This document shows, in pieces, positions 4,391 to 17,347 of a stretch of 64,000 nt of DNA. The stretch lies in assembly GCF_003952345.1 (NCBI RefSeq), contig NZ_CP034433.1:3596001-3660000 (forward strand), in the 5' to 3' direction. This DNA is from Iodobacter ciconiae (GTDB lineage: Bacteria; Pseudomonadota; Gammaproteobacteria; Burkholderiales; Chitinibacteraceae). The first letter of the stretch is position 1, and each line of letters opens with the position of its first letter. Position numbers and translations under genes: made by a program. The notes under the pieces are model-generated. The model saw only the letters and a list, made by a program, of their open reading frames with translations. It had not been told where the DNA came from and ran no database searches.

Positions 4391-5177
4391 GCACTCTTTC
4401 TAAGAGGGATTACCTTCATCATTAACAGCTGGCTTATGCCTGCGTTTATTTGTTGATATACCGCCTGATTCAGTTTTTTTGTTTAAACACAGATTACGCC
4501 GGTTTGTATAACAGGCAAATCAGTCGGCAACACCTGGTTGGTAAAATATTTTTTTATTCAGGTAGATGGGATTGGCCTTTGGCTCATCTCATCTTCTTCA
4601 GGGCAGCGCTTTCACTTTTTACAAAGAGCATAAACAGATGCGCTCTATTAATAAGCATTAGATTATTCTGTTTTTACCCATTTGCTATCGCCGTAGCAGC
4701 TGGTTTGCTTTGATTAAATACGCCCAATATTACTGATCTGCTGCCCTTGTTTTTGCCTCCGCTCTTCATTCGTGCCTCCTCTCTTTAATCTGCAATAACA
4801 TCCATCCAGTACCCATGGAGTGATTTGTCTTTTCACAGAAGGCATATCAATGCGGATAAGTTTTTATTGTTCTGTCAAGCGTTGTGTTGATATGCCAAAT
4901 GCATTGGCTGCATTTTTGCTTTAAAAAGCAAGGTGTAAATGAATGTAAGGTAGGGGTGATTTAAAAAGTTATTTAAAAACAACAGGATAAAAATTTTATT
5001 AATTTGTTGATCACCGTTTACCTCATAAGGCAATGTGAATTTGTGTTTTGTGCTTGCCGTCACATTTTTAAAAATAGCGGGGGAGAACAATGCATTTGTC
5101 GGGTGGCGGATCCATTATGGTAAAGCCCTGGCGTGAAGCTGGACGATAGCTTACATAAACTTTTTGGAGTTCGTAAA
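4391..5177. other. long AT-rich intergenic region upstream of the RTX gene
   Basis: Nearly 790 bases with no credible gene. A short hydrophobic reading frame at 4450-4713 lacks a ribosome binding site and family likeness. A 7-bp hairpin (TTGCTTT/AAAGCAA, 4916-4931) lies about 250 bases before the next start. Abundant surface-layer mRNAs often carry long leaders, so the promoter and a leader for the downstream gene are expected here, but I cannot place them. Confidence 0.4.
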
Positions 5178-7397
5178 ATGGCAACTGCAGCAGCATTAGC
5201 ATTCGTGCAAAAACTCTATGTCGCTTACTATCAACGTCCAGCCGACTATGCTGGGCAGCAATACTGGGCAGAAAAATTTGATCAAGAAGGGGGTGCCTCG
5301 GCAATTGCCACTGCTTTTTCCGTCTCGCCAGAATCAGTTGCACTGTTTGGTTCTCAATCTTTGGGTGCACAAATTAATGCTGTATATCAGGCCGCTTTTG
5401 GCCGTGCAGCAGAAACCGCTGGTTTGCAATTCTATCTGAATGAAATTGGTGCTGGCCGTATGACTGTAGGCACGATGGCGGTTGCCGTGCTAAATGGCGC
5501 GCAGGGTGCGGATTTAACCACTTTGAATTCTAAACTGGCTGTTGCAGATGCTTACACAACTGCCGTTTCTGATGCTTCGGGCATCTTGAAATATGTTGGT
5601 GATGCCTCTGCCATCACGGCACGCACATTTATGGCAACGGTAACAACGGCCAATCAGGCTACGTCGACGGCTGCGATTCCAACCGAGGTTGCCAAGCTGG
5701 TTCTGCCTAGTGTTGTGACCAGCTTTGCCCTCACCGAAGGCATTGATGCCTTTGTTGGCGGGGCAGGAGGGGACAACTTTGTATCTACCAAAGTGGGTGG
5801 TTTTGGCCCGCTTGATTCACTTGATGGTGGTGCTGGCACAGACAGCTTAAGCGTTTCGGATACTGCCGCGATTTCTACATCAAGTAGCCAAGTGGTTAAA
5901 AACATTGAAACAGCCAGCTTGGTGTCCAGCCTTGGTGTGACAGCTGATGTTTCTGGCTGGACCGGCCTGACAAAACTGACAGTGCAGGGCGCGGGTAATA
6001 TGAGCGTGACCGGTGCCACAAGCACTTCGGCTCTCTTGTTTAATTCTGGTGCAAATACCACAACGGTTGTAGGTACTGGTGGTGATTTGGTGATTACCGC
6101 GGGTACGGGGGCGGTCACTGTGGGCGGTACTGGCGTTGCGAATAATCTTTCTTCGGTTAGTGTGACAAATGGTACGAGTGTTGCAATTACTGATCGCAGC
6201 GGTACGGCAGCAGCTACAGGCAGCTCGCTAAAAACAGTATCGGTTACAGGTGCAACTGGCGGCTCAAGCATTACTGGTGACGGAGTCAGCACCCTTAATT
6301 TGTCAACACTCACAGCTGCAACTACTGTAAATAACGTGACATTAACTGCCGCCGCTGCAACTCGTAACCTGACCCTTAATTTGAATGGAGTAGATGAAGG
6401 CGCTGCAGGCACGGATGCGGGTACAACTGTTGTTACCGACGCTGAAGCCACATCGTTAACGATTAATGCAGTTACTTCAAAATCATTTGACGTGACTGCC
6501 GTGACGGCCAAGGCTGTGTCAGTGGCTGTGAAAGCAGATGTTGACTTACAAATGGATGCTTTGGGTAGTGCACTGGCAACCAAGTTGGATGTTTCGGGTG
6601 CCGGTCAATTTACTGCGGATACCTTAACTCTGACGAGCGGCGGGGTTATCACCAGCACCAGCACCGGAGGGGTCGTGTTAAAGAGCGCACTGGGTACAGC
6701 GCAGCAGTTTGCGGGCTCTGCATCTGCAGGTGCTGATTCGATCAGCCTTGCAGCTTCTACTGTTGTACATACAACAGGGGCAGGTAATGACACGGTTACC
6801 GCAACGCAATTTGGTATTGGTGGCAGTATTGATGCCGGTGCGGGTACTGATTCTCTTATTATGACTTCAGCAGATATTGTGGCTAACACGGTAACAACCC
6901 CCACAAAAGCGGCTTCGTTTACCAATTTTGAGACTCTGGTGGCTTCAAATGCACTCGCTACTGTTGATGTAACCAAGTTTGTGGGTGTCACGTCAGTGGC
7001 GGCGATGGGGGGAATTAACGCTGGTACGCTTACTTTGAATACTGGCAATACCGTGGCATTGGGGGCTAATTCCGCAGGTGCCATCGGTTTTACTGTGGGG
7101 GGAATATCTGCCAGCGATACGATGAACTTGAATATGAATGGCTGGGATTGTGCAGGCGCAGCAACGTTTACCGGTGTCGAGACGCTAAATATCAATACAG
7201 GTACTAATGTTGCTCTGGCATTTAATCCGGCCACTCCGACTGTTGTGCCGGTGTCTGTGGCTCCTGCTCAATTTACTAGTACATTAGTTATGAGTTCTTC
7301 CGCAGGTGCCCCTGGCGGTACGATTAATGTGAGCGGCGCAAGTGATATGAATTTCCTGGGGGCGTTACTGCAGCCAAAATCGATGCTTCTGCATTAA
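5178..7397 (+). CDS. S-layer/RTX-like surface protein with N-terminal DUF4214 region (frame-shifted 5' part)
   Basis: The gene runs 5178-8104 but is split by a frameshift; this is the 739-residue product as written. Residues 1-130 form a DUF4214-type helical region (FVQKLYVAYYQRPADYAGQQ, then YQAAFGRAAETAGLQFYLNE), often found in RTX and S-layer proteins exported by type I secretion. The rest is a long repeat-like beta region very rich in Thr, Ala, Val, Ser and Gly, with calcium-binding style GGAGTDSL and GAGNDTV turns. ATG 5178 is preceded by TGGAG; there is no signal peptide, as expected for a type I substrate. The frame ends after LGALLQPKSMLLH. One extra base in the G run at 7358-7362 would read on as LGGVTAAKIDASALTG into the 3' part and give 975 residues. 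A type I exporter is encoded about 3 kb downstream. Confidence 0.85.
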   Translation: MATAAALAFVQKLYVAYYQRPADYAGQQYWAEKFDQEGGASAIATAFSVSPESVALFGSQSLGAQINAVYQAAFGRAAETAGLQFYLNEIGAGRMTVGTMAVAVLNGAQGADLTTLNSKLAVADAYTTAVSDASGILKYVGDASAITARTFMATVTTANQATSTAAIPTEVAKLVLPSVVTSFALTEGIDAFVGGAGGDNFVSTKVGGFGPLDSLDGGAGTDSLSVSDTAAISTSSSQVVKNIETASLVSSLGVTADVSGWTGLTKLTVQGAGNMSVTGATSTSALLFNSGANTTTVVGTGGDLVITAGTGAVTVGGTGVANNLSSVSVTNGTSVAITDRSGTAAATGSSLKTVSVTGATGGSSITGDGVSTLNLSTLTAATTVNNVTLTAAAATRNLTLNLNGVDEGAAGTDAGTTVVTDAEATSLTINAVTSKSFDVTAVTAKAVSVAVKADVDLQMDALGSALATKLDVSGAGQFTADTLTLTSGGVITSTSTGGVVLKSALGTAQQFAGSASAGADSISLAASTVVHTTGAGNDTVTATQFGIGGSIDAGAGTDSLIMTSADIVANTVTTPTKAASFTNFETLVASNALATVDVTKFVGVTSVAAMGGINAGTLTLNTGNTVALGANSAGAIGFTVGGISASDTMNLNMNGWDCAGAATFTGVETLNINTGTNVALAFNPATPTVVPVSVAPAQFTSTLVMSSSAGAPGGTINVSGASDMNFLGALLQPKSMLLH
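7358..7362 (+). other. GGGGG tract at the frameshift in the RTX gene
   Basis: A run of five G in CTGGGGGCGTT. Six G would restore one open frame across the whole gene. It is either a sequencing or assembly error in a homopolymer, a real mutation, or a slippage site that switches the protein on and off. Confidence 0.75.
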
Positions 7398-7465
7398 CAG
7401 GTATTCTGACTGTAGCTGCTGCAGCAGCTAATGCGATTACCATTACTGGTGGCTCTAAAGCTGAC

Positions 7466-8104
7466 GTGATTAATGGTTCTGCCTTTGCAGATTTGATTAC
7501 TGGCGGAGAGGGGGCAGATACGGTTACAGGTGCTGCAGGCAAAGATTCAATTGTTCTGACTGAAACCACTTCAGCAGTTGATACCTTGAAGTATTCAGAA
7601 TCCGGGGTGCTTAATGCTGATACGGTAACTGGGTTCAAAGCTGGTACAGATATTGTTTCTATCACTATTGGTAACATTACTGATAATGGTGGGCTTTTTG
7701 ACACATTAAGTAATGCTGCTGGTGGCGATATTAGTGCTGGTGTAGCTGCAGGAGCTGCGGTTGCTTCATTTACCGGAGCAAGCTCTACTGGAACCTTACT
7801 AGCTAATACGGTAAATCTGGTTATCTTATCAAATGTTGCAGCAACAAGTTTTGCAACTGCGATTGGAACAACAACCTTTACTTCGTCTGTGGGAATGGAT
7901 TCAGGGCTTACTCTTGGGGAGGGGCTTGCAACAGTTTGGTTTGATGCTACCAACTCGCAAGCTGTATATGGTTATATAGAAAATAGTATTGGTGCTGGCG
8001 ATATACTTTCAACATCAGATACTTTCCACGAAATTGTGAGGGTAGGCATGGTAGCGGCTGATTTCACTCAAGGAAATATCACCGCAAGTTTCTCCTTATT
8101 CTAA
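7466..8104 (+). CDS. C-terminal part of the same RTX/S-layer-like protein (other frame)
   Basis: This is the 3' part of the surface protein gene. The family-like reading extends upstream to about 7363 (VTAAKIDASALTG), so the apparent start at 7466 is not a true start. It holds glycine/aspartate RTX-type repeats (GGSKADVINGSAFADLITGG, then EGADTVTGAAGKDS) and ends in an uncleaved-signal-like tail (ADFTQGNITASFSLF), as in type I secretion substrates. Without it the protein would lack its export signal. It has no ribosome binding site of its own, and a strong terminator follows the stop. Confidence 0.8.
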   Translation: MINGSAFADLITGGEGADTVTGAAGKDSIVLTETTSAVDTLKYSESGVLNADTVTGFKAGTDIVSITIGNITDNGGLFDTLSNAAGGDISAGVAAGAAVASFTGASSTGTLLANTVNLVILSNVAATSFATAIGTTTFTSSVGMDSGLTLGEGLATVWFDATNSQAVYGYIENSIGAGDILSTSDTFHEIVRVGMVAADFTQGNITASFSLF

Positions 8105-10175: not shown

Positions 10176-11504
10176 TTAGTGCAGGAGCTGATCTACCGCC
10201 TGTAAATCATTTTCTTGTAAGGTACCGGCATAAAATTTAAGCCGGATATAGCCGCTTAAATAGCTGTATTGGGCAGCCGTGTGTTTTTGCTGGGCTTCAA
10301 AAAAGCGACTTTGGGCGTTGAGTAAATCAACATTGCTGCGCACGCCTGACTGGATGCCTTTGCGGGTGGATTGAATCAGCACATTGCCGGAGCGCACCGC
10401 TTCTTGTAATGCTTTGATCTGCGCCGCACTGGAGCTTAAATCCAGATATTGCTGGCGTAACCCCAGCTCAACCTGTTGCAGGGTATTACGCTGATCTTCG
10501 CTGGCGGCAGTGTGCAGGGCGACCGCGCGTTTGCTGCGGGCGTTGATTTCACCGCCGGAAAACACCGGAATACTGGCGTAAATCATGATGCTATTGGATT
10601 TAATCAGGTTATCTACCGTGCTGTAGTTGGGGCTGTCTTCATAGCTGCTGCGCAGGCGCAGATCAACGGTGGGCAGGTGCTGGTCGATATTTTTACTGAT
10701 TTCCAGTTGAGCCGCGTCAACAGATGCCTGGCGTTCAAATAAAATGGGGTTATTTTGCTTGGCCTGGCTCAGCCATTCGGTCAGCGGGTATTTCAGGTGC
10801 AAATCGGCAGCCATATTGCTGGGCTTGCGATGAGGCAGTTTGCTCATGGGCTCCCCAACCGTAACGCTTAGTTCGTGCAGCTTATTGCTATGCGCAGCCT
10901 CTGCTGACAGGATGTCGGCATCAACAAAATCCAGACGGTTTTGTGCTTCGTTCACATCGGTGACCGTGCCATAACCGGCGGCATACCATTTACTGGCCTG
11001 GGTTTTTTGCTCTTGATAAGCTTTTTTTTGTTCACCCAGCAGCTGCAATTTATCAAATGCCAGCTGCACATCCAGATATTGCTGGGAGAGCCGCAGGATC
11101 AGCTCTTGCTGGCTGCGATCAAGTGCATGGCTGGCTTCTTTTTGCTGGAATTCTGCCTGGGACAGATTATCCCAGGCGGCCATTCTGAAAAGGGGCTGGG
11201 TGAGTGTTGCCGCATAGCTTTGAGTATTAAACAGGTAGTCTTTGGAAATACTCTGCAATCTTGCACCGCTGCCTACATCAAACTCTGTATTTACCCATTC
11301 CCGGCTGCTTTGGGCAGATAGCGATAAATTGGGCAGCAGCGCCGCTCTGGCAATAGGAACGATTTCTTGGGCGGCTAAATTTTGTGCTTTGGAAATAGCG
11401 TAGCGGCTGTCATTTTGCATGGCCTTGGGGTAAAGATTGGCTAAGTCTGCGGCATGGGCTGCGCCGAGTAGCAAGATGGGAATCAGGCATAATTTTGCAC
11501 GCAT
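10176..11504 (-). CDS. type I secretion outer membrane channel, TolC family
   Basis: A 442-residue outer membrane efflux protein. A signal peptide (residues 1-18, MRAKLCLIPILLLGAAHA) is followed by the helical TolC repeat architecture (QEIVPIARAALLPNLSLSAQ near residue 50 and a second half around 250-420). It completes a tunnel from the inner membrane complex to the outside. The chosen ATG 11504 has GGGAG eight bases upstream and starts ten bases after the adaptor gene stops, so the two are co-transcribed and probably translationally coupled. Third transport gene of the operon; the likely substrate is the RTX protein at 5178-8104. Confidence 0.88.
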   Translation of the reverse strand: MRAKLCLIPILLLGAAHAADLANLYPKAMQNDSRYAISKAQNLAAQEIVPIARAALLPNLSLSAQSSREWVNTEFDVGSGARLQSISKDYLFNTQSYAATLTQPLFRMAAWDNLSQAEFQQKEASHALDRSQQELILRLSQQYLDVQLAFDKLQLLGEQKKAYQEQKTQASKWYAAGYGTVTDVNEAQNRLDFVDADILSAEAAHSNKLHELSVTVGEPMSKLPHRKPSNMAADLHLKYPLTEWLSQAKQNNPILFERQASVDAAQLEISKNIDQHLPTVDLRLRSSYEDSPNYSTVDNLIKSNSIMIYASIPVFSGGEINARSKRAVALHTAASEDQRNTLQQVELGLRQQYLDLSSSAAQIKALQEAVRSGNVLIQSTRKGIQSGVRSNVDLLNAQSRFFEAQQKHTAAQYSYLSGYIRLKFYAGTLQENDLQAVDQLLH

Positions 11505-11514
11505 CGTCAGCTCC

Positions 11515-12858
11515 CTATTTTTCAGTAAATGCAAAGGCAAGGCGGTTCAGTAAGGGGCGAATGATGTAATCGAGCAGGCTGCGCTCGCCTGTTTTAATGA
11601 TGACCTCGGTTGACATACCGGGCTGGATGGCCAGTTTTTTATGGCTAAGCTCGGCAAGCCCGTTTTTGGTTACTACAACCTTGGCGCTGAAATAGGCATT
11701 GCCCCGCGGATCAACAATACGGTCGGCAGAAATGCTGTTCAGCTTGCCCTCCAGTATGGGCGCGCTGCCTTTATTACCGAGCGAGGCGAAGCGGATATCG
11801 GCCAGGAGCCCGGGTTGCACTTTGTCAATCAAATGCGGTGGCAGCTGGATTTCTACTACCAGCTCGTCGTTCTCCGGCACGATTTCCATCAGTGTTTCGC
11901 CGGGGCGAATAATGCCGCCGATGGTGTGCACATTCAGCCCGACTACATGGCCGGAGGTGGGCGAGCGCAAAATGGTGCGGGAGAGATCTTCTTCACGCGC
12001 TTTGATTTCATTGCTCCAGCGGTTTAAATCGCTCTGAATCTGGCTGTACTGGGTTTCTACTTCTTTATTGAACTCCTGAGAGCGTTGTAAAATTCTCAGG
12101 GTTAGCTCGCCTTTTTGCCGGCTGGCCTGTTCAATATGACTGAGCCCCTCGCCGTATTCACCGGAGATTTGGGCAAATAAACGTTCCATTTCAAATAAAC
12201 GTGTGCGTGGCGCAAAGCCATCGGCAACCAGATCGCGCAGGCCTGCGATGTCTTTTTCCAGTAATTTGATCTGTTGTTTACGCCCGGCTTCCAAGGCCTG
12301 CAGCCCATTGATCTGCTCGTTAATCCCGGCAATGCTCTGTTGCAGAATATTGCCTTCATTGATCAGTGCGGTGTGGCGGGTGGTGAAGAGCTGGCTTTGC
12401 GTGGCCATGATTGCTTTGGCTTGCGGATTATTTTCTTTTAGCATCTTTTCATTAAAAATAATCTGCGGCTTATGGTTAAGCTCTGCGCTTAAGCGGTCTG
12501 CCAGTGCCTGTGTCTGCCAGTAATTGTTTTGTACCGTAGATAAATAGGCATTGGCCTGGGTTTGATCGAGCAGGACCAGCGGCTGATTTGCGGCGACTTC
12601 TGCGCCTTCTTTCACCAGTATTTTTTCAATCGTTCCTCCTTGCAAGTGCTGAATAGCCTTGCGTTTACTCTCTACCGAGACCACGCCATTGGTTGGAACA
12701 CCTTCGTCCAGTGGGGCAAATGCTGCCCAGAGCAGAAAACCACCCAGGCCAAAGAAAAGAATAAACAGGCCCAGCCGCGTAACCGAGCGGGTGTCGGTGA
12801 GCGTGTTATCAACGTCTAAAATCGGTTCGGGTGATGTTTGTTTGGCAAGTTTTAGCAT
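11515..12858 (-). CDS. HlyD-family type I secretion periplasmic adaptor
   Basis: A 447-residue membrane fusion protein (PrtE/HlyD type). It has a short cytoplasmic N-terminus, one membrane segment at about residues 27-48 (LGLFILFFGLGGFLLWAAFA), a lipoyl-like half (AIQHLQGGTIEKILVKEGAE), a long coiled coil (about 130-270), the second lipoyl half (ILRSPTSGHVVGLNV) and a beta-barrel domain ending TGERSLLDYIIRPL. It links the ABC transporter to the TolC-type channel. ATG 12858 was chosen over an upstream extension. It lies 68 bases after the ATPase gene, in the same operon. Confidence 0.9.
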   Translation of the reverse strand: MLKLAKQTSPEPILDVDNTLTDTRSVTRLGLFILFFGLGGFLLWAAFAPLDEGVPTNGVVSVESKRKAIQHLQGGTIEKILVKEGAEVAANQPLVLLDQTQANAYLSTVQNNYWQTQALADRLSAELNHKPQIIFNEKMLKENNPQAKAIMATQSQLFTTRHTALINEGNILQQSIAGINEQINGLQALEAGRKQQIKLLEKDIAGLRDLVADGFAPRTRLFEMERLFAQISGEYGEGLSHIEQASRQKGELTLRILQRSQEFNKEVETQYSQIQSDLNRWSNEIKAREEDLSRTILRSPTSGHVVGLNVHTIGGIIRPGETLMEIVPENDELVVEIQLPPHLIDKVQPGLLADIRFASLGNKGSAPILEGKLNSISADRIVDPRGNAYFSAKVVVTKNGLAELSHKKLAIQPGMSTEVIIKTGERSLLDYIIRPLLNRLAFAFTEK

Positions 12859-12926
12859 GATGCAGCCCTCTGTTGTTGGGGTTTTGGCAGGTTTCACCCA
12901 CCCTTACGATCATTTTGGGCAGCGTT

Positions 12927-14645
12927 TTAGGATTGTTGCTCTGCCATTGACGGCGCAACGGCCGGTGGCGGATTGAGCGCGGCTAAAACCTGATCACGCG
13001 GGCCGTAATAGCGCAAGGTGCCTTCATTCATGACCAGTAATAAATCGACTATGGCTAGCACATGGGTGCGGTGGGTGATCAGCACGATGGTGGCACCGGC
13101 TTCTTTGGCTTTTAAGATGGCTTGTACCAGGGCGCGCTCGCCCAGTTCGTCCAGATTGGCATTGGGCTCGTCCAGCACAATCAGGCTGGGGTTGCCGTAA
13201 AGGGCACGTGCCAGGCCGATGCGCTGGCGCTGGCCGCCCGATAATCCTGATCCGCCTTCGCCGATAGAGGTGTCATAGCCTTTGGGCAGGCGCAGGATCA
13301 TCTCGTGTACATCAGCCATTTGCGCGGCGGCAACTACTTTTTCGCTGTCGATTTCGCCAAAGCGGGAGATATTTTCGGCGATGGTGCCGGAGAATAATTC
13401 AACATCCTGAGGCAGATAGCCCAGATGCGGGCCCAGCTCGGCTTTATTCCAGGTATAAACATCCACACCATCTAACCGTACTTTGCCCATTACGGTTGGC
13501 CAGATACCAACCAGCAGACGGGCTAAGGAAGATTTACCGCTGGCGCTCGGGCCAACCACACCCAAAATTTGCCCGGCAGCCATGCCAAAGTTCATCCCTC
13601 TGATCACCATATTCTGCGTGCCGGGTATCATGGCCGAGGCGTTATCCACCAGTAGCTGGCCACTGGGGCGCGGCAGGCTCATACCTATGCTGCGGGCAGG
13701 GAAAGTATGCATTAATTCTTGCAGGCGTGAATAAGCCGAACGCACGCTAATAAATTGTTTCCACGTGCCAATGGCCAGTTCAATTGGCGCTAAAGCGCGG
13801 CCCATCAAGATAGAACCGGCAATCATTGCTCCCGGCGTGGTGGAGCCTTCGATGACCAGCAGAGCCCCGGCACCTAGAATTAAAGATTGCAAACTAATCC
13901 GGGTAAATTTGGTAATCGCCGAAATACCACCGGCCTTATCACTGGCCTCGCCTTGCAGGGCCAGAAACTTGCCGTGGTGTTTATACCAGCGCTGCATTAA
14001 TCCTCCCAGCATCCCCATGGCTTCAATCACTTCGGCATTGCGCAAATTATTATTTGCAAAACTGGTGGCTAAATTGGAATGGGTGGTGGCTTCGGCAATA
14101 GGTTTTTTGCTGACCAGTTCGGTGATATAAGCCAGTGATGCCAATAACACCGCACCCACTACTGCCAGCCAGCCCAGCAAGGAGCCGAGCATAAATAACA
14201 CGGCTAAATAAATAGGTGCCCAGGGGGCATCAAAAAAAGCAAATAAACCCTGGCCGGTTAAAAACTGGCGAATATTGTTTAAATCACCCAGTGCCAGGCC
14301 TGCATCGCTATTACCTGCTCTTAAATTACGCTCGAATGCTGCGGTAAATACCCGGGCGTTGAGCTGTGAATCCAATTTACTACTGATACGCACTAGTAAT
14401 CTGGAGCGCACCATTTCTAATAAAGACATTAAGCCATATAGCCCCAGTGTAATCACCGTAATCATAATTAAGGTAGTTTCATTTCTGCTGGCTAATACCC
14501 GGTCGTAAACCTGCAGCATATAAATAGAGGGCACCAGCATCAGTAAATTAATAAAGAAGCTAAAAACGCCGGCAATGATAAAGTGTTGGCGTAAACCATG
14601 TAATACACTGGCCAATTCAGAGCGGGGCTGTAAATGCTGCTTCAT
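12927..14645 (-). CDS. type I secretion permease/ATPase (PrtD family)
   Basis: A 572-residue ABC half-transporter that powers export of RTX-type proteins. Residues 1-300 form the transmembrane domain (FIIAGVFSFFINLLMLVPSI at the start). The ATPase domain has Walker A GPSASGKSS, signature LSGGQRQRIGLARAL, Walker B LIVLDEPNANLD and a switch histidine (TIVLITHRTH). No peptidase-like N-terminal domain is present, which places it with PrtD/RsaD exporters rather than HlyB. ATG 14645 has AAAGGA upstream. It is the second gene of the operon, 23 bases after the TnpB-like gene. Confidence 0.92.
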   Translation of the reverse strand: MKQHLQPRSELASVLHGLRQHFIIAGVFSFFINLLMLVPSIYMLQVYDRVLASRNETTLIMITVITLGLYGLMSLLEMVRSRLLVRISSKLDSQLNARVFTAAFERNLRAGNSDAGLALGDLNNIRQFLTGQGLFAFFDAPWAPIYLAVLFMLGSLLGWLAVVGAVLLASLAYITELVSKKPIAEATTHSNLATSFANNNLRNAEVIEAMGMLGGLMQRWYKHHGKFLALQGEASDKAGGISAITKFTRISLQSLILGAGALLVIEGSTTPGAMIAGSILMGRALAPIELAIGTWKQFISVRSAYSRLQELMHTFPARSIGMSLPRPSGQLLVDNASAMIPGTQNMVIRGMNFGMAAGQILGVVGPSASGKSSLARLLVGIWPTVMGKVRLDGVDVYTWNKAELGPHLGYLPQDVELFSGTIAENISRFGEIDSEKVVAAAQMADVHEMILRLPKGYDTSIGEGGSGLSGGQRQRIGLARALYGNPSLIVLDEPNANLDELGERALVQAILKAKEAGATIVLITHRTHVLAIVDLLLVMNEGTLRYYGPRDQVLAALNPPPAVAPSMAEQQS

Positions 14646-14668
14646 AAAATGTCCTTTATTAAAATTGA

Positions 14669-15277
14669 TTATGCATTTTCTACATCTGTTTTTGATGAAT
14701 CTAATGTCAGCAGGTATTCCGGCCATTCATCCTGGGAGCTTGACTGCATGGCTTCATCGGCATTCAGAAAAATAAAATTGAGCAAATAATGCTGCTGATT
14801 GTTCACAAGCATAATTTCTCTTAATCGCTGCGAGCTAAAGCTATCAATGATTTCAGGGGGAAGTTGTAATTGAAAACGCAATCGTCCCTCCAGCGTAAAC
14901 ATGGACAAAATATTGTCTTTAATACTTAAGGTATGGCGGTCGAAATAAACCGGGGCAGAGGGCAGAAAAAATAATTTGGGTAAAGGTGATTCAGCAGGCA
15001 GATTTTTCCACTTACTTAGCGGATGCTCATATAGGGTGCGATAAGCCCGGCAAACGGCATAAATTGCATTGCATGCCATCTGAGCACCCAAATCAGGTAG
15101 CTGCTCGCGTAAGGCCCTGTAAGCAAGGTGGTGCAGGGTAACGCGATGCCAGCAACGATGCTGCTGCGCAATCGGAGCCACTAAATTACAGCCATTACAA
15201 AACTCAGCCTGCAGTGCCTGCAGCCTTTGTTGCTGCGGGTCTGTTGTTAAAAGGGGGATGGAGTATGTTATGGGCAT
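14669..15277 (-). CDS. protein resembling the N-terminal half of TnpB (no RuvC domain), first gene of the secretion operon
   Basis: A 202-residue protein. Three blocks recall TnpB of IS200/IS605 elements, in the right order and spacing. The first is a helical block with FCNGCNLVAPIAQQ (about residues 26-39), like the FNxACNxI block. The second is TLHHLAYRALREQL with GAQMACNAIYAVCRAYRTL (about 47-82), like the LHxLxYxxxRxxF/AQMxxRxIxKVxxAYK block. The third is a beta block, VYFDRHTLSIKDNILSMFTL then EGRLRF (about 110-135), like TnpB's YDxRxLSFK..VSIxTLxGR. It stops where the RuvC nuclease would begin, so no DDE/RuvC residues or zinc ribbon are present. ATG 15277 fits the family's start; two GTG codons at 15283 and 15286 are alternatives. 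The gene is 23 bases upstream of the exporter ATPase, in the same direction. It may be an exapted DNA/RNA-binding regulator or a helper; function unknown. Confidence 0.65.
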   Translation of the reverse strand: MPITYSIPLLTTDPQQQRLQALQAEFCNGCNLVAPIAQQHRCWHRVTLHHLAYRALREQLPDLGAQMACNAIYAVCRAYRTLYEHPLSKWKNLPAESPLPKLFFLPSAPVYFDRHTLSIKDNILSMFTLEGRLRFQLQLPPEIIDSFSSQRLREIMLVNNQQHYLLNFIFLNADEAMQSSSQDEWPEYLLTLDSSKTDVENA

Positions 15278-15685
15278 AGTCACCACTTTAGGAAAGGTTT
15301 CTCCTATATGAAATGCCTATATGAAGTTTTTTATTGACGTTCGTCGGGAAGGATGAATGGTAAGTTGCAGGAAGTCGTTATGTTTTTTGTGTAAGGTTGT
15401 TTTTTAAGCTGGGCTGTTGATTACTGATTTACTGCTGTATTGCTTGCAGTTTTGAAGCATATATCAGTAGGGTCTGGCTTAAATAGTGGCTATTTCTGTG
15501 CTGTATGCTTATTTTGTCAGGGTTCTTCATGTTAACTCCCATTTTTTATAGGTGTTTAGTAAGTTTGGTGTCTGTATTACCCCACAGAGATACGGCAATG
15601 CTTGTATATTCCTCTTCTTTCTATAAGCTGTCTGTAGTTTAAATGGATGTGTATGTATTGAAGCAGCTTTAAAAGGATCAGTAGC
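15278..15685. other. divergent intergenic region between the secretion operon and the gtr genes
   Basis: About 400 AT-rich bases without a credible gene. It must hold divergent promoters for the TnpB-like/secretion operon (minus) and the membrane protein/gtr genes (plus). I see no confident operator or riboswitch. Confidence 0.4.
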
Positions 15686-17347
15686 GTGACTAGAAAAGCG
15701 GACTTTATATTAGGTTGCTTGTTAGGCCTTTTTGTTGCGATCTATTTTTATGGTATGAAAATAATTGATCCATATAATATTCAGTGGCTTTTAAAGGGGG
15801 GAGATTCTTATCAACATTTTATTGGCTGGGCTTTTTTTAAAAATGATATTTGGCGCTGGCCACTTGGATTTAACCCAAATTTTGGTAGCGAAATAGGGGG
15901 GTCTATTGTATTTACAGACTCAATTCCTTTACTGGCTATATTATTCAAGCTGATATTAAAAGATTTTAGTGAGCCATTTCAGTTTTTTGGTATTGCAGTA
16001 ATGATTAATTACATGCTAACCGGTGGCGTGCTGGTTCTTCTTCTTAAGAAGTTTATTAATAATTTACCTGTATGTTTAATGGTTAGTTTGTTGCTGGTTT
16101 CTTCAACGGTGATGAGCACCCGGGGTATTGGTGCGCACGGGCATGAATCATTAACTGCACACTGGACTTTTCTATATGCAATGCATTTGCTACTGGCTCA
16201 GGAGGGCAAGGCTTTCCCCTCTGTTAAATGGGCTGGGTTGCTTGTTGTTACCTCATTAATTCATTTTTACCTGCTGGTGATTTGTATTCCGTTTTATGCT
16301 GCTGCTCATATTTATCGTTTTTACTTAATAAATGATAAATCAGAAATTAAAAAAGAAATAACAAAAAAGATTTACGGCATTATTTTAACAATCATTATCT
16401 TGCTTGGTGTTATGTATATAGCCGGTTATTTTGTTATGCCTGTGGGGAATGCCAGTACGCGTGGTTATGGAAGCTACCCGGCATCATTACTTACTTTTAT
16501 TAACCCTGCATCTGCAGCATGGTTTTTAAATACAGGGGTAATTAGTTCTTTATCCCGTATTTTTCAAGGATTTCCATCCGCAATTACCGGGCAGTATGAA
16601 GGGCAGGCATATTTGGGCCTGGGGTTAATTATGCTTATTGGTGTTTCTTCTTTTAGTTTATTAAAAAGAAAAGTATCTCTGGTATGGGCAGTACCAGTCG
16701 CAATAGTCTGTTTTTTACTGTCATTGGTTGCGGTAAGTCATCATATATCACTATATGATCAGCAATTTATTATTAGTATGAATCCCATACTTTCCCGTAT
16801 TTTTGGTGTTGTGCGCTCTAGCGGGCGGCTGATCTGGCCAATGTTTTATTTGATGGTGATTATTGCTGCAGTTATTCTGGCCAGAAATTTTTCTGTTGTT
16901 AATCAATATATTCTTTTGCTGCTTGTTATTCTTTTGCAGTTTTTTGATTTGTCTCTCTGGCATGATAGTTTACGAAAAAGAAATAATGATTATTCCTCCG
17001 TATATATTGATAATCTTATAAATAACAAAGATTTTAGCAGGATGATTGCTGGCTCAAAAAAAATTGTTCTTTTGCCTGCCGATTATCTGGATGATTTTCA
17101 GATCTATGCATGGGAGGCTGTTCGGGCAGGGATTTCAATTAACTCCGGTTATTATGCACGTTTACCTTCGTCAGACTATTTTAAAAAAATAAATGAAGCT
17201 CATTTAAATGAAGTCAGAACCTGCAATTTAATCCCGCATGTTTTATATATTATTCGCGAGGTTGACGTGGAGGTATGCCAGGCCAGAGATATTATTTATG
17301 CTAAATCACATAATGCTCTATGGATGATAAAAGGAGAAAATAACTGA
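15686..17347 (+). CDS. polytopic membrane protein, DUF6311-like (putative glycosyltransferase of a gtr cluster)
   Basis: A 553-residue protein with about ten to twelve hydrophobic segments and an extracytoplasmic C-terminal part (residues 440-550). The first loop has GGDSYQHFIGWAFFKND, then LGFNPNFGSEIGGSIVFTDS, a pattern I associate with DUF6311 proteins, thought to transfer sugars or glycerol-type groups outside the membrane. GTG 15686 has AAAAGGA nine bases upstream. It is followed by GtrB- and GtrA-type genes. In such three-gene sets the polytopic protein is the specific transferase that moves a sugar from the lipid carrier to LPS or another surface acceptor. The exact sugar is unknown. 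Confidence 0.7.
   Translation: MTRKADFILGCLLGLFVAIYFYGMKIIDPYNIQWLLKGGDSYQHFIGWAFFKNDIWRWPLGFNPNFGSEIGGSIVFTDSIPLLAILFKLILKDFSEPFQFFGIAVMINYMLTGGVLVLLLKKFINNLPVCLMVSLLLVSSTVMSTRGIGAHGHESLTAHWTFLYAMHLLLAQEGKAFPSVKWAGLLVVTSLIHFYLLVICIPFYAAAHIYRFYLINDKSEIKKEITKKIYGIILTIIILLGVMYIAGYFVMPVGNASTRGYGSYPASLLTFINPASAAWFLNTGVISSLSRIFQGFPSAITGQYEGQAYLGLGLIMLIGVSSFSLLKRKVSLVWAVPVAIVCFLLSLVAVSHHISLYDQQFIISMNPILSRIFGVVRSSGRLIWPMFYLMVIIAAVILARNFSVVNQYILLLLVILLQFFDLSLWHDSLRKRNNDYSSVYIDNLINNKDFSRMIAGSKKIVLLPADYLDDFQIYAWEAVRAGISINSGYYARLPSSDYFKKINEAHLNEVRTCNLIPHVLYIIREVDVEVCQARDIIYAKSHNALWMIKGENN

What the first reader, a model, noticed from the sequence alone, without database searches (positions are those of the whole stretch)
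14669..15286. A RuvC-less TnpB-like protein heads a type I secretion operon
Seen: three motif blocks in the right order and spacing recall the N-terminal half of TnpB (FCNGCN, then LHHLAYRALRE with GAQMACNAIYAVCRAYRTL, then YFDRHTLSIKDNILSMFTLEGR). The protein stops at about 200 residues, before the RuvC nuclease, and lies 23 bases upstream of the exporter ATPase on the same strand. Known: nuclease-dead TnpB relatives (TldR) have been exapted as RNA-guided repressors, but they keep a RuvC-like part. Inferred: a much smaller exapted form could use the recognition half alone to regulate the secretion or surface-layer genes, or serve another role in the operon. No IS200/IS605 ends or TnpA are visible nearby, so it does not look like a fresh transposon remnant.
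Basis: partly seen in the sequence, partly recalled or inferred. Interest (0 to 1): 0.82.

Follow-up and report, generated by a model that had tools for sequence, protein, structure and literature searches.

The report
Nuclease-less TnpB likely turned operon repressor
A gene at the head of a bacterial protein-export operon is the DNA-reading half of a transposon nuclease, and it appears to have become a plain repressor that recognises the transposon's old target word in the operon's own promoter.

Summary
The minus-strand gene at 14669-15286 encodes about 202 aa homologous to the REC+WED half of TnpB (38% identity to full-length TnpBs, E 3e-19; profile-profile probability 100%; top PDB fold matches Cas12f and TnpB). 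It stops where RuvC would begin. It is not a decaying fragment: I found 32 RuvC-less loci in Iodobacter and other proteobacteria, 31 directly upstream of a PrtD-type exporter ATPase. They form one clade, under strong purifying selection in Iodobacter.

New here: the operon promoter carries an 11-bp near-palindrome, TTCATATAGGA (variant TTCATATATGAA). Within one mismatch it occurs in 18 of 18 non-redundant loci where the gene comes first. Where TolC precedes the gene, it sits upstream of TolC. It is absent from 22 of 22 PrtD loci without the gene nearby. It begins with TTCAT, the word at 11 of 11 left ends of related TnpB insertion sequences delimited by comparing copies, so probably their TAM. 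The highest-scoring TnpB relative, L070, is an exception.

Best explanation: the TAM-reading lobe became a protein-only, probably dimeric, autorepressor of the secretion operon. Binding, repression and RNA-independence are inferred. A guide with a 6-nt seed is not excluded.

The parts
14669..15277 (-). RuvC-less TnpB-derived protein (REC+WED lobe, 202 aa, ATG start; alternative GTG start at 15286)
15302..15312 (-). candidate operator site, TTCATATAGGA (proximal)
   Evidence: the two-site operator is exact in 8 of 9 Iodobacter genomes
15315..15325 (-). candidate operator site, TTCATATAGGC (distal, direct repeat at 13-bp spacing)
12927..14645 (-). PrtD-type type I secretion permease/ATPase, 23 bp downstream
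   Evidence: NCBIfam TIGR01842, E 7.7e-230
11515..12897 (-). HlyD-family periplasmic adaptor
   Evidence: NCBIfam TIGR01843, E 6.3e-107
10176..11504 (-). TolC-family outer membrane protein
   Evidence: NCBIfam TIGR01844, E 1.1e-79

Best explanation
A TnpB of an IS200/IS605 element whose TAM was probably TTCAT lost its RuvC nuclease half and kept the REC+WED lobe, which in TnpB reads the TAM duplex (shown for ISDra2 TnpB, PMC10097598). The lobe was captured, probably once, at the head of a type I secretion operon. There it binds, probably as a dimer and without guide RNA, the near-palindromic 11-12 bp operator TTCATATAKGA(A), a TTCAT word facing TTCAT or TTCCT on the other strand. Sites overlapping or flanking the -10 and the start codon let it repress its own operon (itself, one or two PrtD ATPases, HlyD, TolC) and hold exporter levels steady.

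Shown computationally: homology, domain boundary, operon conservation, grouping as one clade, purifying selection in Iodobacter, motif co-occurrence, and the TTCAT word at related IS left ends. Inferred: direct binding, dimer, repression, RNA-independence, homeostasis.
For: Homology and boundary. hhalign pairs residues 2-174 with TnpB 2-168, just before the RuvC MGVD motif. AlphaFold pLDDT 86.2, pTM 0.83, with strand, REC helices, barrel in that order.

Operon: PrtD directly downstream in 31 of 32 RuvC-less loci. Tree: 29 RuvC-less proteins on one side of a branch, support 99/96. dN/dS 0.01-0.10 in 20 of 21 Iodobacter pairs (dS above 1 in 16 of these 20, so rough); one pair gave no value.

Operator:
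- Counting all 10-mers with one mismatch allowed, TTCATATAKG-type words are among the top in 18 of 21 non-redundant upstream windows; 10 shuffles top out at 4-5. Of two coding-sequence controls, one inside the conserved gene also reaches 18 and one inside the next gene 11.
- The other 3 loci have TolC first, and the motif lies upstream of TolC (two exact, one with 1 mismatch).
- No other exact copy in the 29 loci scanned.
- The exact inverted pair occurs in 2 of 399 genomes, both at this gene; 9 of the 399 carry the gene, most with another arrangement.
- 0 of 22 PrtD loci without the gene within 1.5 kb have the motif in that 1.5 kb.
- The one Iodobacter genome of 9 without the gene also lacks a close PrtD and the operator.
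- A -10-like hexamer near the start in 18 of 18 loci, 5.6 expected.

TAM: TTCAT at 11 of 11 left ends delimited by comparing copies, and at 2 more found by searching for TTCAT and recognised by the shared sequence that follows.

Against RNA: no credible IS right-end remnant in 29 loci; no guide hexamer conserved outside the operator, 6 of 29 loci having none at all; no Rfam hit above gathering score in window 14000-16000; synonymous changes spread over the CDS; fewer basic residues; site conservation stops after base 11-12.
Against: No binding or expression data. TldR guides can work with a 6-nt seed (PMC13418256, passages), and TTCAT plus ATAKGA equals a TAM plus 6 nt, so guidance by a distant or cryptic RNA is not excluded. 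The highest-scoring TnpB relative (L070) has no clear TTCAT at its left end; the nearest candidate is GTCAT. The TAM assignment rests on IS flanks and the recalled IS200/IS605 rule, not on cleavage assays. In Iodobacter the sites are direct rather than inverted repeats and the -10 is weak (TAAAGT). L031 has only an imperfect site (TTCATATAAGGA). Site statistics are biased because TTCAT was required there. In one search the best -10 of L081 overlaps an operator-like stretch. Another regulator could bind the motif.
Confidence: 0.68

Rival explanations
1. RNA-guided repressor of the TldR type in miniature: the REC+WED lobe still holds a guide RNA (from elsewhere, or from the operon's own transcript) whose first six bases, AUAGGA, pair next to the TTCAT TAM at the operon promoter.
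For: The conserved site is exactly a TAM plus six bases, and TldR repression works with 6-nt guides (PMC13418256). WED contributes to omega-RNA binding in ISDra2 TnpB.
Against: The RuvC part of the RNA- and heteroduplex-binding surface is gone. No credible IS right-end remnant, no guide hexamer conserved outside the operator, no Rfam RNA above gathering score near the gene, free synonymous change, fewer basic residues. The variant site is a palindrome (TTCATATATGAA), which a guide does not need.
Confidence: 0.15
2. The protein is a regulator of the operon but an activator, or acts on the mRNA leader, rather than a DNA-level repressor.
For: -35 boxes look weak by eye, and sites sit close to the start codon.
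Against: In loci with an upstream copy it lies 5' of the likely -10, so it would not be transcribed; a site overlapping the -10 or start codon is a typical repressor position (general knowledge); direct repeats in Iodobacter cannot form a leader hairpin.
Confidence: 0.08
3. The protein is an accessory part or chaperone of the exporter, and the promoter motif belongs to another regulator.
For: 31 of 32 loci are next to the exporter, and the C-terminal LPxYLxV tail is conserved in the family and absent from TnpB.
Against: Among the PrtD loci examined the motif goes with this gene, not with PrtD (0 of 22 without it), and it contains the TAM word of related IS elements.
Confidence: 0.06
4. Transposon remnant without function.
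For: Homology to IS-encoded TnpB.
Against: Intact frames of 191-245 aa in divergent genera, dN/dS 0.01-0.10 in Iodobacter, fixed operon position. One copy, L035, is truncated.
Confidence: 0.02

Closest known systems
TnpB of IS200/IS605 elements (for example ISDra2 TnpB; here L010, L070, and Methylomarinovum L143)
   Same: REC helices inserted in a WED barrel; conserved RVALHHLAY..LGSQMACNAI-type block; for most of the related IS examined, the same DNA word, TTCAT
   Different: No RuvC or zinc-ribbon half, no transposase gene beside the exporter operon, no guide RNA detected, chromosomal operon gene
TldR (TnpB-like nuclease-dead repressor)
   Same: TnpB-derived and, by inference, a transcriptional repressor
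   Different: TldR keeps an inactivated RuvC and works with a guide RNA; here RuvC is absent and no guide was found; the operator is near-palindromic and conserved across genera
Cas12f (dimeric miniature Cas12)
   Same: Best fold matches; works as a dimer (UnCas12f1, PMC10097598 passage), a precedent for pairing such proteins
   Different: Nuclease with a CRISPR guide; this protein has only the first half

Membership tests
TnpB RNA-guided nuclease | REC+WED lobe homologous to TnpB | tested here: met
TnpB RNA-guided nuclease | RuvC nuclease domain with catalytic D-E-D | tested here: not met
   The RuvC-less ORFs end before the RuvC MGVD motif
TnpB RNA-guided nuclease | Linked omega-RNA / IS right end | tested here: not met
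   29 loci searched with 3 IS right ends: only weak short matches (best blastn E 0.005, 26 bases in L030; best profile E 0.22, also L030); the profile found 2 of 3 control IS loci, the miss being a degraded copy
TldR | RuvC-like domain retained but catalytically dead | tested here: not met
   Domain absent
TldR | Adjacent guide RNA matching the target next to a TAM | tested here: inconclusive
   TAM-like TTCAT present at the operator; no guide hexamer conserved outside the operator, no RNA family above gathering score; a remote guide is not excluded
TldR | Represses transcription of a target gene | not testable with these tools
   Operator placement only suggests it
Type I secretion operon gene | Conserved position in PrtD-HlyD-TolC operons | tested here: met
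   PrtD directly downstream in 31 of 32 loci

The most novel reading that the evidence does not exclude
A family of guide-free transcription factors made from the TAM/PAM-reading lobe of a TnpB/Cas12-type nuclease: the lobe alone, dimerised, reads two inverted copies of the ancestral TAM as a classical operator.
Probability: 0.62. Interest if true: 0.92.

Novelty: categorically new. Interest (0 to 1): 0.86.

Why it matters
The TnpB exaptations known to me (TldR, Cas12) keep the RNA-guided logic. Here the part that normally only licenses the first DNA contact seems to have become a stand-alone sequence-specific DNA-binding protein whose operator still carries the ancestral TAM word. It would show that TAM/PAM recognition can be separated from RNA guidance. 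It would also offer a roughly 200-aa DNA-binding scaffold, and make the origin of a transcription factor directly testable by comparing IS TAM with operator. It also names a candidate regulator for this group of type I secretion operons.

Tried and rejected
Library searches (Pfam, NCBIfam, PHROGs, PDB by sequence) give no significant hit; taken alone they would have wrongly refuted the finding. Other exact copies of TTCATATAKG in the own genome were checked as possible further targets: all three lie inside ORFs. One further 1-mismatch site in the window (36243) is within chance. RNA hypotheses were tested by Rfam (only a twister-P1 match at 18.9 bits against a 67.2 cut-off), IS right-end search and guide-hexamer scan. 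A 110-aa ORF in G412 (L079, E 3e-7) resembles part of REC but has no exporter in the 11 kb fetched; not pursued. Weak matches in G482 and G732 were not followed. Papers: PMC10097598 and PMC13418256 were seen as passages. The TldR Nature 2024 paper (PMC11702177) and the TnpB/Cas12 classification paper (PMC10691335) are not held, so what I say of TldR in general is recalled or comes from PMC13418256. Searches for an earlier report of a RuvC-less or guide-free TnpB regulator found none in their listings; coverage is the open-licence library only. The pdb_via library was not available.

Counting notes. The 32 RuvC-less loci are the 20 plus 12 others (G000, G004, G005, G007, G037, G169, G173, G264, G269, G298, G334, G717). 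The 29-locus motif scans omit L090, three Iodobacter genomes and duplicate records; they include L035. For the 21-locus count I dropped 5 Iodobacter rows, L029, L030 and L035 as near-duplicates or fragment; one search also drops the 3 TolC-first loci. For the 0-of-22 control, 30 of the 32 listed PrtD matches were scanned; I set aside 4 with the gene and 4 that are the second ATPase of such operons; the 22 include two tandem pairs. 'Without the gene' means none within the 1.5-kb flank. Two of the 4 loci with the gene (L138, L139) show no motif in the 1.5 kb because TolC comes first. Left ends: L016 is 5'-truncated, L076 is masked upstream, L071 is a 5'-truncated copy and L070 shows no TTCAT; these four are outside the 11. 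L144 (a phage-labelled contig) has the same IS as G054. dN/dS used the first 190 codons of 7 sequences.

Full report
WHAT IS THERE. The gene lies on the minus strand at 14669-15286. The ATG at 15277 is shared by the Iodobacter copies aligned and gives 202 aa. Its stop is 23 bases from the ATG of a PrtD-type ATPase, followed by HlyD and TolC. The genus is Iodobacter, judged from named relatives and the same-genus handles that match those records; the window's own genome is one 3.88-Mb contig and holds one copy.

IT IS THE REC+WED HALF OF TNPB. Curated libraries miss it, but relatives do not. In a 61-genome search it matched 7 copies of a 432-aa TnpB at about 38% identity, E about 3e-19. The copy examined, L010, sits beside a Y1 transposase and carries OrfB_IS605 and Cas12f1-like_TNB domains. 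In plasmids the protein matches a Methylomarinovum 'transposase' beside an IS200/IS605 tnpA (E 1e-26) and Bacteroides genes annotated as RNA-guided endonuclease TnpB (E 2e-5). A profile of 20 RuvC-less proteins aligns with 5 TnpBs at probability 100, E 4e-40, residues 2-174 against 2-168; the RuvC motif MGVD follows directly in TnpB. The AlphaFold model is good (pLDDT 86.2, pTM 0.83). All 16 PDB matches at E <= 0.001 are Cas12f or TnpB chains (TM by query 0.46-0.60, so the fold agrees but the superposition is moderate). In ISDra2 TnpB, residues 1-176 are WED and REC, the TAM duplex lies in the cleft between them, and the omega-RNA scaffold binds WED plus RuvC (PMC10097598, passages). The protein therefore keeps the TAM reader and drops much of the RNA holder.

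IT IS A CONSERVED FAMILY IN ONE OPERON. One scan of genome contigs gave 20 loci, and genome searches added 12 more RuvC-less loci. In 31 of 32 the next gene is PrtD. The exception, L035, is a 3'-truncated second copy in Tepidimonas aquatica. Outside Iodobacter, 20 of 22 operons that could be read have two PrtD ATPases in tandem. In the order sample, 15 of 399 genomes matched: 9 RuvC-less, 5 with TnpB (full-length or cut by a contig end), 1 unclear fragment. In the class sample 4 of 369 matched: the own genome, one more RuvC-less (L090, which groups with Sulfurivirga), and two weak ones not followed. The 29 RuvC-less rows form one side of a branch with 99/96 support against 8 TnpBs; three long TnpB branches make the TnpB side uncertain. 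dN/dS among 7 Iodobacter sequences is 0.01-0.10 in 20 of 21 pairs; dS exceeds 1 in 16 of these 20, so the values are rough; one pair gave none.

THE OPERATOR. Reading upstream regions showed TTCATATAGGA or its reverse complement near almost every start. A count of all 10-mers, one mismatch allowed, gave TTCATATAKG-type words in 18 of 21 non-redundant loci, against a best count of 4-5 in 10 shuffles. The same count inside the conserved gene also reaches 18, as expected of conserved coding sequence, and inside the next gene 11. The three loci without it are those where TolC precedes the gene, and there the site lies 5' of TolC: exact direct pairs in L027 and L082, one mismatch in L083. L031 has only an imperfect form, TTCATATAAGGA. 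No other exact copy occurs in the 29 loci scanned. Arrangements vary: inverted pairs around a -10 with the start ATG inside the right-hand copy, direct pairs at 13-16 bp, or single sites, some fully palindromic. A -10-like hexamer is found in 18 of 18 loci (5.6 expected) and ends 6-13 nt before the start codon in 17 of 18, suggesting short-leader or leaderless transcripts; in L081 it overlaps an operator-like stretch.

CONTROLS. The exact inverted-pair pattern occurs in 2 of 399 genomes, both at this gene, with none for the reversed pattern; 9 of those genomes carry the gene, the others having different arrangements. Of 22 PrtD loci without the gene within 1.5 kb, none shows a site in that stretch, even with one mismatch. 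Of 9 Iodobacter genomes, 8 carry gene and exact operator; G002 lacks both and has no close PrtD (best 30% identity). In the own genome TTCATATAKG occurs 5 times: 2 here and 3 inside ORFs.

THE TAM LINK. The motif suggested a prediction: related TnpB elements should border TTCAT. Left ends delimited by comparing copies read TTCAT then AGAA in 6 of 7 copies in G054 (the seventh is truncated), 3 of 3 in G128 and 2 of 3 in G181 (the third is masked): 11 of 11 that could be read. Two more, in Methylomarinovum and on a phage-labelled contig with the G054 element, were found by searching for TTCAT and recognised by the shared sequence that follows, so they count for less. One G128 insertion abuts what reads as the start of a host gene (by my reading, purN; no call identifies it), so TTCAT looks like host sequence there. 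By rough arithmetic a random 5-mer would match somewhere in a 12-bp site about 1.6% of the time (16 of 1024; inference). Against this, L070, the TnpB that scores highest with the family profile, shows no clear TTCAT at its left end. That the left-end flank equals the TAM is recalled knowledge of IS200/IS605.

WHY PROTEIN-ONLY IS FAVOURED. No credible right-end remnant (weak short matches only, best a 26-base match at E 0.005 in L030). No guide hexamer conserved outside the operator; 6 of 29 loci have none within 600 bases of the gene, and most hits elsewhere are the operator read on its other strand. No RNA family above threshold. Synonymous change is spread over the CDS. K+R is 8-15% in 28 RuvC-less proteins against 14-17% in the same part of 8 TnpBs, two of them cut short by contig ends. 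Site conservation stops at base 11-12 (where TTCAT was required by construction), and the T variant makes a full palindrome. Against this, TldR can use a 6-nt seed (PMC13418256, passages), so a short guide remains possible.

VERDICT. The family, its operon link and its operator link are strong. That this protein binds the operator is likely. Repression and RNA-independence are inferences awaiting bench tests. It fails membership in TnpB nucleases and in TldR (no RuvC; no guide found), but it probably works as a repressor, as TldR does, with classical operator recognition. I rate it categorically new because the likeliest reading has no described counterpart in the listings I searched. If a guide RNA were found it would become a new variant of TldR.

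Noticed in passing
window 5133-8104 (+): Putative surface or secreted protein (DUF4214; glycine/aspartate-rich stretch) reads as two ORFs in different frames (5133-7397 and 7466-8104): a frame break or two genes; possible exporter substrate.
   Followed up: no
L022-L034, L037, L081-L083, L085-L087: These operons carry two PrtD-type ATPases in tandem, unlike the single one in Iodobacter, L036 and L084; a heterodimeric exporter seems likely. G060 and G106 have tandem ATPases without the TnpB-derived gene within 1.5 kb.
   Followed up: partly
L022, L026, L028-L030, L032, L034, L037, L081, L085-L087: The start ATG lies inside an operator copy, shortly after a -10-like hexamer: probably leaderless mRNAs.
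   Followed up: partly
L079:5160-5489: 110-aa ORF resembling only part of REC (E 3e-7), with no exporter in the 11 kb fetched; perhaps a further reduced relative or chance.
   Followed up: no
L035:7980-8564: Second, 3'-truncated copy of the gene in Tepidimonas aquatica that still has one operator copy; on the same contig as the intact one (L023).
   Followed up: no
L143:1015-2533: In the Methylomarinovum plasmid an IS4-family transposase gene lies between the IS200/IS605 left end and its tnpA.
   Followed up: no
L026: The contig labelled Chitinophaga pinensis (MAG) carries a copy very close to the Malikia locus L029 and is probably misbinned.
   Followed up: no
L070:2090-3277 (-): TnpB with no TnpA seen in the stretch read, whose N-terminal half is very close to the RuvC-less family but whose left-end flank looks like GTCAT rather than TTCAT.
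   Followed up: partly
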